Positions 52,254-58,777 of a stretch of 64,000 nucleotides of DNA are shown here, in pieces. The stretch covers positions 2,232,001 to 2,296,000 of the forward strand of contig NZ_JAPELY010000001.1 of the NCBI RefSeq assembly GCF_026343295.1, given 5' to 3'. This DNA comes from Streptomyces sp. NBC_00083. Lineage in GTDB: Bacteria > Actinomycetota > Actinomycetes > Streptomycetales > Streptomycetaceae. How positions within the stretch are numbered: position 1 is the first letter of the stretch; each line of letters opens with the position of its first letter. A program made the translations under genes and the position numbers. The notes under the pieces were generated by a model that was given only the letters and a program-made list of their open reading frames with translations, did not search any database and was not told the origin of the DNA.

Positions 52254-53624
52254 ATGACCGGCTCCACCCCACGCAGAACCTTCCTCGCCGCGGCCGTCGC
52301 CGTCGCGGCCGGTGCCGCCGTGACCTCGTCCGGCGGACCGGCGGCAGCCGCCGCGTCCGGCGCCGCGTCCCGAACCAGACAGGGCCAACAGCTCGTGGAC
52401 AACCAGGCCTGGACCACCCACGCCCAGTGGCGCTCGGGCGCCGCGCACGGCGTGCGCGCCGAGGACGGCCGCCGTCCGGGCATCGTGATCGACCGCCCCG
52501 CCGGGACCACCGTCTACACCGACCCGCACACCGGGGCGAGCGCCACCTGGGAGTACGCGAGCTGGACCTCGCCCCTTCACCGCTCCACCGTCCCCGCCAC
52601 CGAGGCCGTCGCCCACTGGAACGCGCACACCCCCGCCGGGACCTGGCTCCAGGTCGAACTGCTCGGCACGTACACCGACGGCACCGCGACCCCCGCGTAC
52701 GTCATGGGCCGCTGGACGGCCGGCGACGGCGACACCGACATCCGGCGCACCTCCGTCGACGGCCAGGGCGACGGCAAGAGCTCCATCTCGACGGACACCT
52801 TCGCCATCGGCGCCCCCGCCACCGGGCTGCGCCTGGCCGCCTACCGGCTGCGGATCACGCTGTACCGCCGGCCGGGCAGCCGGCTCACGCCGACCGTGTG
52901 GCGGGTCGGCGCGATGGCCTCCGACGTTCCCGACCGGTTCACGGTGGACGCCTCGACCCCGGGTTTCGCGGGCGAGCTGGAGGTGCCGAGCTACTCGCAG
53001 GAGATCCACAAGGGCCAGTACCCCCAGTACGACAACGGCGGCGAGGCCTGGTGCAGCCCCACCTCCTCGCAAATGATCATCGAGTACTGGGGGCGGAAGC
53101 CCAGCCCCGCCGACCTCGCCTGGGTCGACCCCGCCTACGCCGACCCCCAGGTCTGCCAGGCGGCCCGCGGCACCTACGACTACCAGTACGCCGGGTGCGG
53201 CAACTGGCCTTTCAACGCGGCGTACGCCGCCACCTACCGGGACATGAGCGCCGTCGTGACCCGGCTGCGCTCCCTGAACGACGTGGAGGGCCTGATTCGC
53301 GCGGGCATCCCGGCCATAACGTCCCAGTCCTTCCTGGCGACGGAGCTGACCGGCGCCGGCTACGGCACCTCCGGCCATCTGATGACGGTGACCGGCTTCA
53401 CCGGCACCGGGGACGTGATCGCACACGATCCCGCCTCGCCCGACGACAGCGCGGTCCGCCGCGTCTACAAGAGGCGCGAGTTCGAGAACATCTGGCTGCG
53501 CACCAAGCGCCACAACGCGAGCGGCAACGTGGTGTCCGGCACAGGCGGCGTCTGCTACCTGTACTGGCCCGCGGACCCGACGCCCGTGCAGCGCACGGCC
53601 CTCGCGGCCGTCGGCATCCGCTGA
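52254..53624 (+). CDS. Tat-exported C39-like cysteine peptidase
   Basis: 456 residues. The N-terminus TPRRTFLAAAVAVAAGAAV is a likely Tat signal. A ~190-residue beta-rich N-terminal domain is followed by a papain-like peptidase C39-type domain with Cys267 (GGEAWCSPTSSQM), His375 (GTSGHLMTVTGF) and Asp392 (VIAHDPAS), which fit a Cys-His-Asp triad. Exported cysteine peptidases of this kind are common in Streptomyces; the substrate is unknown. The upstream 200 bases hold no gene. Confidence 0.9.
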   Translation: MTGSTPRRTFLAAAVAVAAGAAVTSSGGPAAAAASGAASRTRQGQQLVDNQAWTTHAQWRSGAAHGVRAEDGRRPGIVIDRPAGTTVYTDPHTGASATWEYASWTSPLHRSTVPATEAVAHWNAHTPAGTWLQVELLGTYTDGTATPAYVMGRWTAGDGDTDIRRTSVDGQGDGKSSISTDTFAIGAPATGLRLAAYRLRITLYRRPGSRLTPTVWRVGAMASDVPDRFTVDASTPGFAGELEVPSYSQEIHKGQYPQYDNGGEAWCSPTSSQMIIEYWGRKPSPADLAWVDPAYADPQVCQAARGTYDYQYAGCGNWPFNAAYAATYRDMSAVVTRLRSLNDVEGLIRAGIPAITSQSFLATELTGAGYGTSGHLMTVTGFTGTGDVIAHDPASPDDSAVRRVYKRREFENIWLRTKRHNASGNVVSGTGGVCYLYWPADPTPVQRTALAAVGIR

Positions 53625-53740: not shown

Positions 53741-53905
53741 ATGACCCTGCCTGCCACCACGCTCGACGACCCCCGCGCCCTGGCCGAGCTGCGCGCCCGC
53801 ACCGGCGGCCCCAAGGACACCGGCCCCAAGATCCTCGAACACGTCCTGGGCTGGACCCTCGTGGTGGTCATCGCCATGCTGGTCACTCAGGCCGGGCTGC
53901 TGTAG
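53741..53905 (+). CDS. Small membrane protein, SCO1431-like family
   Basis: 54 residues, read directly from the ATG at 53741 to the TAG at 53903-53905. The N-terminal half is charged (ALAELRARTGGPKDTGPKILEH) and the C-terminal half is one membrane helix (LGWTLVVVIAMLVTQAGLL). This matches, in my recollection, a small actinobacterial family named after SCO1431. Its last 23 bases overlap the 3' end of the opposite-strand membrane protein gene. Function unknown; single-helix topology suggests a regulatory or scaffold subunit. Confidence 0.8.
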   Translation: MTLPATTLDDPRALAELRARTGGPKDTGPKILEHVLGWTLVVVIAMLVTQAGLL

Positions 53906-54785
53906 CCGGCCCCCGGTCGAACTCCGCACCGGCCCTCCAGTGCCGGTGCGGAACCCCCACGAGGCCGTACAGGAAGCGCACCGGAGAGCGCCGGGCCAGG
54001 AGCGCCGCTCCCGCCAGGACCGCGAAGAGCGCGAGGCCCAGCGGCCACCCCGTCAGGCGCACCAGGGCGCTCGCGGCGAGGGCGCCGACGCAGGGCAGCC
54101 CGTAGACACCGGCCGCCGCGACGGCCACCGCGACGATCCGTGGCACCTTCCGGTCCTCGTCCGCGCCCGGCAGCTCCCAGCCCTCCATGAGCCAGCCGAT
54201 CTCCATGACGAGCAGGGTGCCGATCACCGCCGCGCCGAGCACGAGGAGCGCGAGGAACGTCCCCGACGTCACGAAGTGCAGCACGTGGTTGACCACGCTG
54301 TCCCGCGGCCACGCGCGCAGCTCCCGCGGGGCGGTGGTGAGCAGCCGGCGGTAGCCCGTGCCGTCCCAGCCGTGGACGAGCACCGCGCACAGCAGGAAGT
54401 GCCCGCCGACGCTCTGCAGGTAGGCCCAGTATCCGGCGCCCACGAGCACCAGCGCCTGTGCGACGAGGAAGCCGAGCACCGCGGCGACCACCGTGCCCCC
54501 CGCGTCGAGGAACACGAACCCGGCCCAGACGCCGTGCGCGTCGTGAGCCACCTGCATCGTCGCCCACGACGGGTTCTGCCACAGCATGAAGAGCCCCGTG
54601 GGCACCTGAAGCACCGCGGCGAAGAGCACGGTCAGGGTGAGGTACGGATTCGCGGCGCGGCTGCGCGTGCGCACCCCCTCCTCGTGCACCGAGCGCTGCC
54701 ACCACTGGAGCTGGCGGGCGGCCGAGACGGCGAGGGTGGCGCCCGTCGCGTACGCCCAGAACAGCGCGGCCTGGATCGGGATCAC
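53883..54785 (-). CDS. Multi-pass integral membrane protein
   Basis: 300 residues with about 7-8 hydrophobic segments. The GTG start sits in the stop of the DUF6114 gene (4-base overlap). Several histidines lie at helix ends (VAHDAHGVWAGFVFLDAGG, GGHFLLCAVLVHGWDG, NHVLHFVTSG), reminiscent of a heme- or quinone-linked membrane protein, but I cannot place it in a named family. It is the last gene of the DUF6230-DUF6114 operon and faces the 54-residue membrane protein. Confidence 0.75.
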   Translation of the reverse strand: MIPIQAALFWAYATGATLAVSAARQLQWWQRSVHEEGVRTRSRAANPYLTLTVLFAAVLQVPTGLFMLWQNPSWATMQVAHDAHGVWAGFVFLDAGGTVVAAVLGFLVAQALVLVGAGYWAYLQSVGGHFLLCAVLVHGWDGTGYRRLLTTAPRELRAWPRDSVVNHVLHFVTSGTFLALLVLGAAVIGTLLVMEIGWLMEGWELPGADEDRKVPRIVAVAVAAAGVYGLPCVGALAASALVRLTGWPLGLALFAVLAGAALLARRSPVRFLYGLVGVPHRHWRAGAEFDRGPATAARPE

Positions 54786-55966
54786 GAGGCCCCCAGGGTC
54801 AGGCCGTTCGCGACGATCGAGTCCGAGGTGACCAGGGCCTGTTCGGCCGTCACCCGGGTCATGAACACGAACGGCGGGACGACCGGCGGCACCGGCAGGG
54901 TGGTGGGGTCGAAGGTGAGGCAGAGCAGCCCTTCGAGACAGCCGCTGAACTTGCTGAGATAGAGCGTCACGTTCCCGCTGAGGTCCAACGAGTCTGCTCC
55001 CAGGGCGAGTTCGTCATGGCCGTCGCGGGTCTTGAGGCGGTAGTCGGTGAGCGAGGCCGAGGTCATCCGGAGCACCATCACCTTGAGGGGGCCCTGCGCC
55101 GTGGGCACGGTCGTCACCCCGGCGAGCAGGAAGCCGTGGGGGGCGAAGCGCGTGGTGGTCACCGCGGGCGGCACCAGGGGCGCGGTGACGGCGCCCGCCC
55201 TCGGCGGAGCCGGAGACGGTGGGGCCTGCGTCTGCGCCTGCGCCGGTGGGCGCGGGTCCAGGGCGATCAGCAGGGCCACGGGCAGGGCGGCGGCGAGCGT
55301 GCGCTGCGTGCGTACGGAGGTCGCGCGCCCGGTGGCCTGCTCCTTCGGCGTCCAGCCGAACCCCATGGCGCTGCCCGCGATCCCGAGCGCCATCCCGACG
55401 AGGAACCCGCCGAGGTTGGTGGCCGCGAAGGAGAGCACCGACAGGATCAGGGCGTTGAGGGACACGTAGTGCCGGGTGTGCGGCAGGACCCACAGGAAGA
55501 GTCCGGCGACGACGAGGGCAAGGCCGATGCCGATCGCGGCGATTCCGCCGAGGCCCAGGCTGACCAGGATGGTGAGCGGAGACAGCGGCACCACGAGCAG
55601 CTCCGTGCCGCCGAGCACGAGCAGGAGCCCGGCCCAGAACGGCCGGGTCCGCCGCCATCCCCGCAGCGCGCGCCGGGCCTCGGGCAGCGGGAGCCGCTCG
55701 TCGAGCCAGGGGTACCGGACGCCGGACGTGCCGGTCGGGCCGGACCGGGCGGAGGTGCCACCGGGCCGGTCCGGCCGGGGCCGGTCGGGCCGGGGCGCCC
55801 AGGCCCAGGGTGCAGCGGTCGGCGGTGAGCCGTCCCGCGCCCGCGCCCCCGGCCGCGTCCGGGGTGCAGGGCCCTCGGGGGCGCCACCCGGGGTGCCGCT
55901 CTCGTCCGGGGTGGCGGCCCCGCCGGCGCGGGGTGGCCGGAGCAGGGCCAGCCGCCTCAGAAGCAC
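54782..55966 (-). CDS. DUF6114-domain membrane protein
   Basis: 394 residues from a GTG at 55966 that overlaps the DUF6230 stop by 10 bases. A Pro/Arg-rich cytoplasmic N-terminus (~95 residues) is followed by a four-helix membrane domain (RRTRPFWAGLLLVLGGTELLVVPLS to GFLVGMALGIAGSAMGFGWTP) of DUF6114 type. A Pro/Ala/Gln linker and an exported C-terminal domain of ~120 residues (TRFAPHGFLLAGVTTVP to DSIVANGLTLG) complete it. The start could lie further downstream, since the N-terminal part is low-complexity. No biochemical role is known to me. Confidence 0.8.
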   Translation of the reverse strand: MLLRRLALLRPPRAGGAATPDESGTPGGAPEGPAPRTRPGARARDGSPPTAAPWAWAPRPDRPRPDRPGGTSARSGPTGTSGVRYPWLDERLPLPEARRALRGWRRTRPFWAGLLLVLGGTELLVVPLSPLTILVSLGLGGIAAIGIGLALVVAGLFLWVLPHTRHYVSLNALILSVLSFAATNLGGFLVGMALGIAGSAMGFGWTPKEQATGRATSVRTQRTLAAALPVALLIALDPRPPAQAQTQAPPSPAPPRAGAVTAPLVPPAVTTTRFAPHGFLLAGVTTVPTAQGPLKVMVLRMTSASLTDYRLKTRDGHDELALGADSLDLSGNVTLYLSKFSGCLEGLLCLTFDPTTLPVPPVVPPFVFMTRVTAEQALVTSDSIVANGLTLGAS

Positions 55967-56571
55967 TTCTTGCCGCCGATGCTCACATCGACCTTCATCC
56001 CCTTCAGGCGGAAGTCGCCACCGGTCGCCGACCAGGCGTGCGACTTCACGCCGTCGACCTCGATGGAGCCGGCCTGGAGGCCGAACTTGCCCGGCTGGCC
56101 CTGAACTCCCTTGACAGCATCCAGAGTTGAGGCGTCCCGGCCTATCTGGGCGGTGCCGAACCGCGCGTCGCCGACCAAGTCCTCGCCGTCGATGACCAGA
56201 TTGCTGGCGGTGACCTCGCCCGCGTCGCCGCCCGCCGTCAGCTTGAAGACCACCGTGCCGACGGGGGTGCTCACCTCGGCGGACTGGCAGATGTCGCTGA
56301 GCCTCGCGTCGCCGATGCCGAGCAGCGCCACGGGGTGGCCCTTGCCGTCGACGGACCGGTCGGTCTGGACGTACGAGGAGAGCCCCGAGCTGGTCAGCTT
56401 GCCCGACGCGACCTGGAAACTGGTGCCGGAGACCGCGAACGACGCGGCCAGCGCGCCCTCGGCCATCACATTGGCCATGATCCCGACCGCGACGACCGCC
56501 GGAAGGGCGACGACCGCGGTCTTCCTCCATGCTGTTCTGCCCTCGGCCAACGGCCTTCTGGCTGCGCTCAC
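55957..56571 (-). CDS. DUF6230-family secreted or anchored protein
   Basis: 204 residues from the GTG at 56571, with GGGAGGA upstream; the frame extends to 56682 without conservation. One N-terminal hydrophobic segment (AWRKTAVVALPAVVAVGIMANVMAEGALA) could be a signal peptide or anchor. The rest is a beta-rich domain with the pattern typical of DUF6230 (VSGTSFQVASGKLTSSGLSSYVQTDRSVDGKGHPVALLGIGDARLSDICQS) and a cysteine near each end. It is the first gene of the operon and is divergent from the TetR gene. Confidence 0.85.
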   Translation of the reverse strand: MSAARRPLAEGRTAWRKTAVVALPAVVAVGIMANVMAEGALAASFAVSGTSFQVASGKLTSSGLSSYVQTDRSVDGKGHPVALLGIGDARLSDICQSAEVSTPVGTVVFKLTAGGDAGEVTASNLVIDGEDLVGDARFGTAQIGRDASTLDAVKGVQGQPGKFGLQAGSIEVDGVKSHAWSATGGDFRLKGMKVDVSIGGKKCF

Positions 56572-56683
56572 TTGATCCTCCCGTACGATCCGGCGAACCC
56601 TCGGAAAGGCGGTGCAGGGGGAGTGCGAAGGCAGGTCTGCCATACTGCGGGCATCCTGCGGCAGTTGGAGACTAGGGCTCAAT

Positions 56684-57343
56684 TTGAATAATAGTCAACA
56701 GGGCGGAACGACCGAGAGATCCCAGGCGCGTCGCTCCGAACTCATCGCGACAGGGCGGAAGTTGTTCGCCGACACCTCCTACGACGCGCTGTCGATGGAT
56801 GACATCGCCAAACACGCGGGGGTGGCCAAGGGCCTGATCTACTACTACTTCAAGTCCAAACGGGGCTACTACCTCGCCATCGTCGAGGACTCCGTCGCCG
56901 ATCTCGTCTCGCGCGCCGCGAGCGACACCGAGCTGCCCCGCGCCGAGCGCGTGCACCGCACCATCGACGGCTATCTGCGCTACGCCGAGCACCACCAGGC
57001 GGCGTACCGGACGATCGTCACCGGCGGGGTCGGCTTCGACACCCAGGTGCAGGCGATCCGGGACGCGGTGCGCGAGGAGCTGATCGCCACCATCGCCGTC
57101 GGCGCCTACGGCACCCGGGACGTCCCGGTGCTCGCCCGGCTCGCCCTGCTCGGCTGGCTCGGCAGCGTGGAGAGCGTCACCCTCGACTGGCTCGGCTCCC
57201 TCGAACCGCCCCGCGACACCGTGCGCGAGCTGCTCGTGCGGATGCTTCGGCGCACCCTGGACACCATCGAGGAGTTCGAGCCGTCCTGCCCCGCCCCGGA
57301 CCCGTCCCGGGCGCCGGAGGCCTGGAGCGCGTCGGAGCACTGA
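56684..57343 (+). CDS. TetR/AcrR-family transcriptional regulator
   Basis: 219 residues if the TTG at 56684 is used (AGGG upstream); the GTG at 56612 would add 24 poorly conserved residues. N-terminal HTH: RRSELIATGRKLFADTSYDALSMDDIAKHAGVAKGLIYYYFKSKRGYYLAIV. The C-terminal ligand domain is typical of Streptomyces TetR proteins. It is divergent from the DUF6230 operon and probably represses it. The partly palindromic TTGAATAATAGTCAA at the putative start could be its operator. Confidence 0.85.
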   Translation: MNNSQQGGTTERSQARRSELIATGRKLFADTSYDALSMDDIAKHAGVAKGLIYYYFKSKRGYYLAIVEDSVADLVSRAASDTELPRAERVHRTIDGYLRYAEHHQAAYRTIVTGGVGFDTQVQAIRDAVREELIATIAVGAYGTRDVPVLARLALLGWLGSVESVTLDWLGSLEPPRDTVRELLVRMLRRTLDTIEEFEPSCPAPDPSRAPEAWSASEH

Positions 57344-57400: not shown

Positions 57401-58690
<1,290 letters not shown>

Positions 58691-58777
58691 CGTGATCTCC
58701 TCGTGGGGAGGGGAGAGCGGGGGCAGGACGCGACGGCTCGAAGCGATTGACATGAACGCACTAAGTCGCTGAAGGGA

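What the first reader, a model, noticed from the sequence alone, without database searches (positions are those of the whole stretch)
53883..57343. DUF6230-DUF6114-membrane protein operon with divergent TetR regulator
Three genes overlap by 10 and 4 bases, encoding an anchored or secreted beta protein, a membrane protein with an exported C-terminal domain, and a His-rich multi-pass membrane protein. Tight coupling implies a stoichiometric envelope complex of unknown function, controlled by the TetR-type protein. This is the best candidate here for an undescribed system.
Basis: inference. Interest (0 to 1): 0.5.

Follow-up and report, generated by a model that had tools for sequence, protein, structure and literature searches.

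The report
TetR-controlled envelope lipid operon (proposed)
A soil bacterium carries a tightly packed three-gene operon for cell-envelope proteins with its own local genetic switch; related genes and switches elsewhere hint that it handles fatty-acid-type lipids, but its exact function is not known.

Summary
On the minus strand A (DUF6230), B (DUF6114 plus an exported beta-domain) and C (a 7-TM protein) overlap by 10 and 4 bases, with a divergent TetR gene R. All four genes recur together in 19 of 19 distinct close loci. R and A share an interval with a palindrome over the -35 box, conserved in 14 of 14 rows and unique in the 7.8-Mb genome, so R looks like a dedicated local regulator.

The parts have separate histories. 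DUF6230 is in 295 of 297 Streptomycetaceae genomes, beside DUF6114 in 30 of 30 loci examined. In the housekeeping copy (SCO5420 by gene order; reported almost 37-fold up on Tween) a separate third gene encodes the domain fused to B here. C belongs to a family absent from Pfam and NCBIfam, found from Streptomyces to a Helarchaeota MAG, usually without A/B, often beside a FadR-like TetR with a GAATGACNNGTCATTC palindrome. R's nearest named relative is FasR, a fatty-acyl-CoA sensor.

Best reading: an acyl-lipid-responsive envelope module that joins a TetR-C unit to the DUF6230/DUF6114 set. Lipid handling and a physical complex remain inference.

The parts
56684..57343 (+). R: TetR-type regulator, divergent from A; probable TTG start
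   Evidence: TetR_N 58 bits; best NCBIfam model FasR 64 bits, below its cut-off of 330; present in 20 of 20 relative loci
56681..56698 (-). Conserved block TTGACTATTATTCAAATT: imperfect palindrome TTGA-N7-TCAA, proposed R operator over the -35 hexamer
   Evidence: Identical in 13 of 14 aligned rows, one substitution in L071; one site in 7.8 Mb at up to 3 mismatches, reversed-pattern control none; 0 expected in shuffles of the window
56669..56698 (-). Proposed promoter of A-B-C: TTGACT, 18 bases, TAGTCT
   Evidence: Read from the sequence; not tested
55957..56571 (-). A: DUF6230 protein, 204 aa, basic N-terminus plus hydrophobic stretch (anchored or exported), two Cys (95 and 203)
   Evidence: PF19741 153 bits; starts shared with relatives; Cys conserved
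55957..55966 (-). 10-base overlap of A and B
   Evidence: kept in 17 of 20 relative loci
54782..55966 (-). B: 394 aa, variable Pro/Arg-rich N-terminus, DUF6114 membrane domain, exported beta-domain
   Evidence: PF19609 105 bits over residues 102-206; weak model, pLDDT 61
54785..55207 (-). C-terminal beta-domain of B, homologous to the third protein of the housekeeping locus
   Evidence: Profile comparison probability 95.2, E 2.6e-8
54782..54785 (-). 4-base overlap of B and C
   Evidence: available in 17 of 20 relative loci
53883..54785 (-). C: 7-TM protein of a family without a Pfam or NCBIfam entry; conserved W74, M77 and HGWDG-x-GY-x-R (138-147) in loops predicted outside
   Evidence: 0 families; 25-row alignment; model pLDDT 79.7, pTM 0.82; positive-inside count 25 of 25 rows

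Best explanation
The locus is a self-contained, acyl-lipid-responsive envelope module. R binds the palindrome over the -35 box of the A-B-C promoter and represses it (inferred). A fatty-acyl ligand, probably an acyl-CoA or similar lipid, releases R (inferred from the nearest relatives of R and of the TetRs beside other C genes). The overlapping genes are then translated together (overlaps shown, coupling inferred): an exported or anchored DUF6230 protein, a DUF6114 membrane protein with an exported beta-domain, and the 7-TM protein C with its conserved motif facing outwards. Together they bind, move or process an acyl lipid at the outer face of the membrane (inferred). The module arose by joining C and a TetR to a duplicated DUF6230/DUF6114/beta-domain set (order of events inferred).
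For: Four genes together in 20 of 20 close loci, 19 distinct. Unique, conserved palindrome at the shared promoter. B is a fusion of two proteins that are neighbours in the housekeeping locus, which supports joint work of A, B and the beta-domain. SCO5420, DUF6230 by gene order, rose almost 37-fold on Tween against glucose (passage in PMC7494193; order). R's best NCBIfam model and second PDB match are FasR, a sensor of long fatty acyl-CoA (PMC7382501). TetRs beside distant C genes have Bacillus FadR as best model in 9 of 10 tested; five other TetRs scored at most 50 bits with FadR and never best; best PDB match of one is 3whb, 'Fatty acid metabolism regulator protein'. Conserved motif of C predicted outside.
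Against: No ligand, binding or contact was tested. R and the FadR-like TetRs fall far below the cut-offs of those models, and R's best PDB match is 2qib, a TetR of unnamed function. FasR is an activator (abstract line), so R need not repress. Induction on Tween concerns the paralogue, and its identity rests on gene order. Proteins with the same 'cholesterol esterase' label also respond to nitrogen and to sugars. The palindrome of R differs from that of the FadR-like TetRs. DUF6230 is near-universal whereas C is rare (15 of 297), so A and B cannot depend on C.
Confidence: 0.42

Rival explanations
1. Efflux or detoxification unit: C exports or inactivates a toxic hydrophobic compound that R senses, and A/B are accessory envelope proteins.
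For: A local TetR beside one membrane protein is the classic layout of efflux genes (recalled). In three Streptomyces genomes the only GAATGACNNGTCATTC sites are the two at the TetR-C unit, as expected of a one-target regulator.
Against: C matches no transporter family in Pfam or NCBIfam and no convincing fold in the PDB; its most conserved residues lie in outer loops. Two TetR types beside C both have acyl-CoA sensors as nearest named relatives.
Confidence: 0.2
2. Extracellular esterase system: A is a sterol- or Tween-ester hydrolase ('cholesterol esterase') and B and C anchor it or take up the products.
For: SCO5420 carries that label and rises almost 37-fold on Tween. A family of actinomycete cholesterol esterases was reported (Xiang et al. 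2007, seen only as a reference-list entry in PMC4098958; that it is DUF6230 is recalled, not seen).
Against: In 46 DUF6230 rows no His column is conserved (best 28 of 46); the invariant polar residues are few, so no Ser-His-Asp triad is visible.
Confidence: 0.16
3. A structural or developmental envelope complex without a lipid substrate, which R ties to growth phase.
For: DUF6230 is in 295 of 297 Streptomycetaceae genomes, which fits a general envelope role; the TetR match scores are modest.
Against: Does not explain why C, found in several phyla, sits beside TetRs closest to fatty-acid regulators, nor the response of the paralogue to Tween.
Confidence: 0.17

Closest known systems
Housekeeping DUF6230-DUF6114-third-gene locus between thioredoxin and pyruvate kinase (SCO5419-SCO5423 by gene order)
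   Same: DUF6230 and DUF6114 side by side, followed by the beta-domain of B; a copy is in the window's genome.
   Different: Beta-domain on a separate protein, no C, no TetR seen between thioredoxin and pyruvate kinase in the loci examined; A is 34% identical to the paralogue.
FasR, TetR-type regulator of fatty-acid synthesis in M. tuberculosis
   Same: Best curated model for R (64 bits) and its second and third PDB matches.
   Different: Far below the FasR cut-off of 330 bits; R sits beside envelope genes, not fatty-acid synthase genes.
FadR, TetR-type repressor of fatty-acid degradation in Bacillus
   Same: Best curated model for 9 of 10 TetRs tested beside distant C genes; their palindrome resembles the B. 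subtilis FadR box TGAATGAnTAnTCATTCA (recalled; and the failed one search did not confirm it).
   Different: Scores 54.7-74 bits against a cut-off of 200; in the Streptomyces genomes tested the sites lie only at the TetR-C unit. R of the window is not of this group (20-36 bits against them).

Membership tests
DUF6230 (PF19741) | Score above Pfam's gathering cut-off | tested here: met
   A: 153.1 bits against 27.5, profile 1-145 of 145
DUF6114 (PF19609) | Score above Pfam's gathering cut-off | tested here: met
   B: 105 bits against 27.9, profile 2-106 of 106
TetR family | TetR_N HTH domain above cut-off | tested here: met
   R: 58.2 bits against 24; TetR_C_46 42 against 27
FasR (NF053731) | NCBIfam equivalog cut-off | tested here: not met
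   R: 64.2 bits against 330
Bacillus FadR (NF053878) | NCBIfam equivalog cut-off, TetRs beside distant C genes | tested here: not met
   54.7-74 bits against 200 in 10 of 10 tested
Actinomycete cholesterol esterase | Conserved Ser-His-Asp catalytic set | tested here: not met
   No conserved His column in 46 DUF6230 rows, best 28 of 46; the window counts twice among the 46
Actinomycete cholesterol esterase | Hydrolysis of cholesteryl esters | not testable with these tools
   Needs purified protein
Known transporter or membrane-enzyme folds (for C) | Fold shared with a solved structure | tested here: inconclusive
   No Foldseek match at E 0.001 or better; VIA-align best Z 5.4, within the range of common arrangements
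Anti-phage defence proteins (PADLOC) | PADLOC model match for A, B or C | tested here: not met
   0 families for A, B, C and one distant C; R has one short 18-bit match, mad1

The most novel reading that the evidence does not exclude
C founds an unrecognised, cross-phylum family of outward-facing 7-TM acyl-lipid enzymes, transporters or receptors that is commonly kept under its own FadR- or FasR-like acyl sensor with a dedicated palindrome; Streptomycetaceae wired such a sensor-effector pair onto the exported DUF6230/DUF6114 apparatus to build a lipid-processing machine of the Gram-positive envelope.
Probability: 0.3. Interest if true: 0.65.

Novelty: new variant of a known kind. Interest (0 to 1): 0.42.

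Why it matters
DUF6230/DUF6114 proteins are in nearly every Streptomycetaceae genome sampled and I found no firm function for them; 'cholesterol esterase' is a label without a visible catalytic triad. The window holds a fused, compact and separately regulated copy with a single predicted operator, so ligand screening with R, a reporter and one clean deletion could assign a role. C defines a protein family without a Pfam or NCBIfam entry that reaches several bacterial phyla and an archaeal MAG; its recurring local TetR partners make its inducer directly testable.

Tried and rejected
Structure of C: fair model, no PDB match by sequence or fold. Structure of B: weak model (pLDDT 61, pTM 0.37), no usable match. 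A was not folded because only two jobs were allowed. PDB sequence searches: none for A; two CFA/I fimbrial entries for the B domain over 33 columns, with no stretch passing on its own, taken as spurious. A versus the B-type domain: not supported. C on plasmids: no match. DUF6230 in viral contigs: 47 pattern matches, none confirmed. R as FasR, or as a member of the FadR-like group: rejected by cut-off and scores. Paper searches: DUF6230 one paper, a promoter list; DUF6114 none; operator letters none; all in open-licence PubMed Central papers only. A guessed locus tag had no hit. My first gene caller mis-framed some loci; one search replaced it, and part of its output was cut. In one search ten neighbours of distant C genes were scanned, picked because they looked recurrent; enoyl-CoA hydratases and alpha/beta-hydrolases came up, mainly in one related group of genomes, so I did not count them as evidence. 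The search for GAATGACNNGTCATTC in whole genomes at up to one mismatch also gave one hit of the reversed control pattern in each of three Streptomyces genomes.

Dropped rows: L063 (remnant of C) and L077 (holds L050) were left out of the alignment; L062 gave no C hit at E 0.1 although one search lists it at 3.7e-9; L068 was left out of the B alignment. Of 21 other genomes with C, 18 were fetched (not G406, G529, G539). For the alignment I left out L092, L096, L094 and L098 and trimmed L090 and L093.
Full report
OBSERVATION. The finding is in the sequence as described. On the minus strand A (55957-56571), B (54782-55966) and C (53883-54785) overlap by 10 bases (GTGCTTCTGA) and 4 bases (GTGA). 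R runs the other way from about 56684 to 57343. Pfam places A in DUF6230, B in DUF6114 and R in TetR; C has no Pfam or NCBIfam match. The longer ORFs in frame with A and B are cut back to 204 and 394 aa by starts shared with relatives and by a Shine-Dalgarno sequence before A.

CONSERVATION OF THE UNIT. Among 297 Streptomycetaceae genomes sampled, 15 have a match to C: 8, the window's own included, at 59% identity or more, and 7 weaker or fragmentary. A scan of named genomes gave 13 Streptomyces loci of at least 63% identity and 11 distant loci of 30-37%. In 20 of 20 close loci fetched (L050-L056, L065-L077) R, A, B and C are all present; L050 lies inside L077, so 19 are distinct. A GTG start 10 bases inside A is kept in 17 of 20; in L068 B starts one base after A's stop, in L055 and L056 there is a gap. 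A start giving the 4-base B/C overlap is available in 17 of 20, not in L052, L053 and L056.

PROMOTER AND OPERATOR. The R-A interval of the window and 13 named loci aligns around TTGACTATTATTCAAATT, identical in 13 rows and with one substitution in L071. On the minus strand TTGACT and TAGTCT, 18 bases apart, read as a promoter for A. The block is an imperfect palindrome over the -35 hexamer. The 18-mer occurs once in the 7.8-Mb genome at up to 3 mismatches, the reversed control not at all, and the 15-mer is not expected in shuffles of the window. R therefore looks like a dedicated regulator of this operon; binding, and repression rather than activation, are inferred.

ORIGIN OF A AND B. DUF6230 is in 295 of 297 Streptomycetaceae genomes. 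The window's genome has a second DUF6230 and a second DUF6114 next to each other. In 30 of 30 DUF6230 loci examined, the best-scoring 30, a DUF6114 gene lies alongside. In ten genomes that I picked, the window's own included, the order is thioredoxin - DUF6230 - DUF6114 - a gene with the beta-domain; a pyruvate-kinase signature follows in nine of ten, not in L090, and in the window's genome only after about 4.8 kb. The third protein of the window genome's copy has no Pfam match, and its C-terminal domain is homologous to the end of B (probability 95.2, E 2.6e-8). B is thus a fusion of two proteins that are neighbours elsewhere.

LINK TO LITERATURE. S. coelicolor SCO5419 is a thioredoxin (passages in PMC5693915 and PMC7244524) and SCO5423 is pyk2 (passages in PMC7494193), so the three genes between them fit DUF6230, DUF6114 and the third protein; this is inference from gene order. 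SCO5420, there called cholesterol esterase, rose almost 37-fold with Tween as carbon source against glucose (passage). Proteins with the same label respond to nitrogen supply in S. venezuelae and to xylose and xylobiose in strain SirexAA-E (passages in PMC3087709 and PMC12772271); I did not show that these are DUF6230. In 46 DUF6230 rows no His column is conserved (best 28 of 46); two Cys, C95 and C203, are invariant in 13 full-length rows. This argues for an exported disulfide protein and against a classical Ser-His-Asp esterase.

THE C FAMILY. Twenty-five aligned C proteins, from Streptomyces to Deltaproteobacteria, Sandaracinaceae, Atopomonas, a Planctomycetota MAG and a Helarchaeota MAG, share Q5, P62, W74, M77, HGWDG-x-GY-x-R (138-147) and W159. 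MAG contigs can be misassigned, so the archaeal case is the least sure. AlphaFold2 gives seven membrane helices (mean pLDDT 79.7, pTM 0.82). Lys and Arg lie more on one side in 25 of 25 rows, which puts the N-terminus and the conserved loops outside. Foldseek and VIA-align give no convincing relative, nor do PDB sequences, PADLOC or PHROGs.

REGULATORS BESIDE C ELSEWHERE. In a sample of 396 Actinomycetota genomes 22 have C, the window's own included. Of the other 21, I fetched 18 loci: a TetR gene lies directly beside C in 16 (not L129 and L141), and A or B in none. Of 16 distant loci with a C hit (L057-L061, L078-L088), 7 have a TetR of the same type (L057-L060, L080, L087, L088), L081 has another TetR and 8 have none detected; in two of those, L078 and L082, C lies at the contig edge. 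The TetRs of this type are about 38-52% identical to each other across phyla. Their best NCBIfam model is Bacillus FadR in 9 of 10 tested (54.7-74 bits, cut-off 200; in L131 FasR leads by one bit); five other TetRs from the same loci, L081's among them, scored at most 49.6 bits with FadR and had other best models or none. The best PDB match of one is 3whb, 'Fatty acid metabolism regulator protein'. A palindrome GAATGACNNGTCATTC lies close upstream of TetR and/or C in 20 of 34 loci examined (18 perfect; L078 and L088 with one mismatch) and in none of 7 other loci; shuffled palindromes gave 0.016 hits per locus. In three Streptomyces genomes the only sites are the two at the TetR-C unit, where the reversed control also gave one hit each; G023 has one site; six genomes of one distant family have one to three sites, some elsewhere; the window's genome has none.

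HOW THE WINDOW'S REGULATOR FITS. R is not a close relative of that group (20-36 bits). Its best model is FasR (64 bits, cut-off 330); its PDB matches are 2qib, a TetR of unnamed function, then FasR. FasR senses long fatty acyl-CoA and is an activator (title, start of abstract and passages of PMC7382501). Two different TetR types beside C thus both have a fatty-acid regulator as nearest named relative. This is suggestive, not proof.

MECHANISM AND STATUS. Shown: gene content, overlaps, conservation, fusion, family of C, unique conserved palindrome. Inferred: control by R, release by an acyl ligand, joint work of A, B and C on a lipid at the outer membrane face, and assembly of the operon from two pre-existing units. 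Not shown: a stoichiometric complex.

NOVELTY. A and B are new copies of known DUF families; local TetR control of envelope genes is a known kind of circuit. The C family, its recurring TetR partner, the B fusion and the four-gene combination were not found described in the open-licence papers searched, a search that could only use names and letters. I rate it a new variant of a known kind.

Noticed in passing
L057-L060, L078, L080, L087, L088, L133-L138, L140, L142-L146: Palindrome GAATGACNNGTCATTC close upstream of a FadR-like TetR and/or a C-family gene, from Actinomycetota to a Planctomycetota and a Deltaproteobacteria MAG: an apparently undescribed regulatory unit.
   Followed up: partly
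L129, L133, L136, L137, L144, L145: Enoyl-CoA hydratase (L133, L136, L145) or alpha/beta-hydrolase (L129, L133, L137, L144) genes within a few kb of the TetR-C unit; these genomes are largely from one related group.
   Followed up: partly
56600-56668: Conservation between R and A goes on past the promoter (CAACTG-CC.CAGGATGCCCG..AGTATGGC in most rows); a second site or an mRNA element is possible.
   Followed up: no
53741-53905: Small ORF of 54 aa with a hydrophobic C-terminal half, on the plus strand, overlapping the end of C by 23 bases tail to tail.
   Followed up: no
L063 (G013): Remnant of C: two short matches of 58-67% identity in a reading frame that loses the family sequence, with no A or B nearby.
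   Followed up: no
L045: DUF6230 copy that is nearer to A (42%) than to the housekeeping copy (38%), with DUF6114 close behind it: possibly a third type of the pair.
   Followed up: no
52254-53624 (+) and 57401-58753 (-): Flanking genes of the operon: a Peptidase_C39_2 protein and a GH18 family protein.
   Followed up: no
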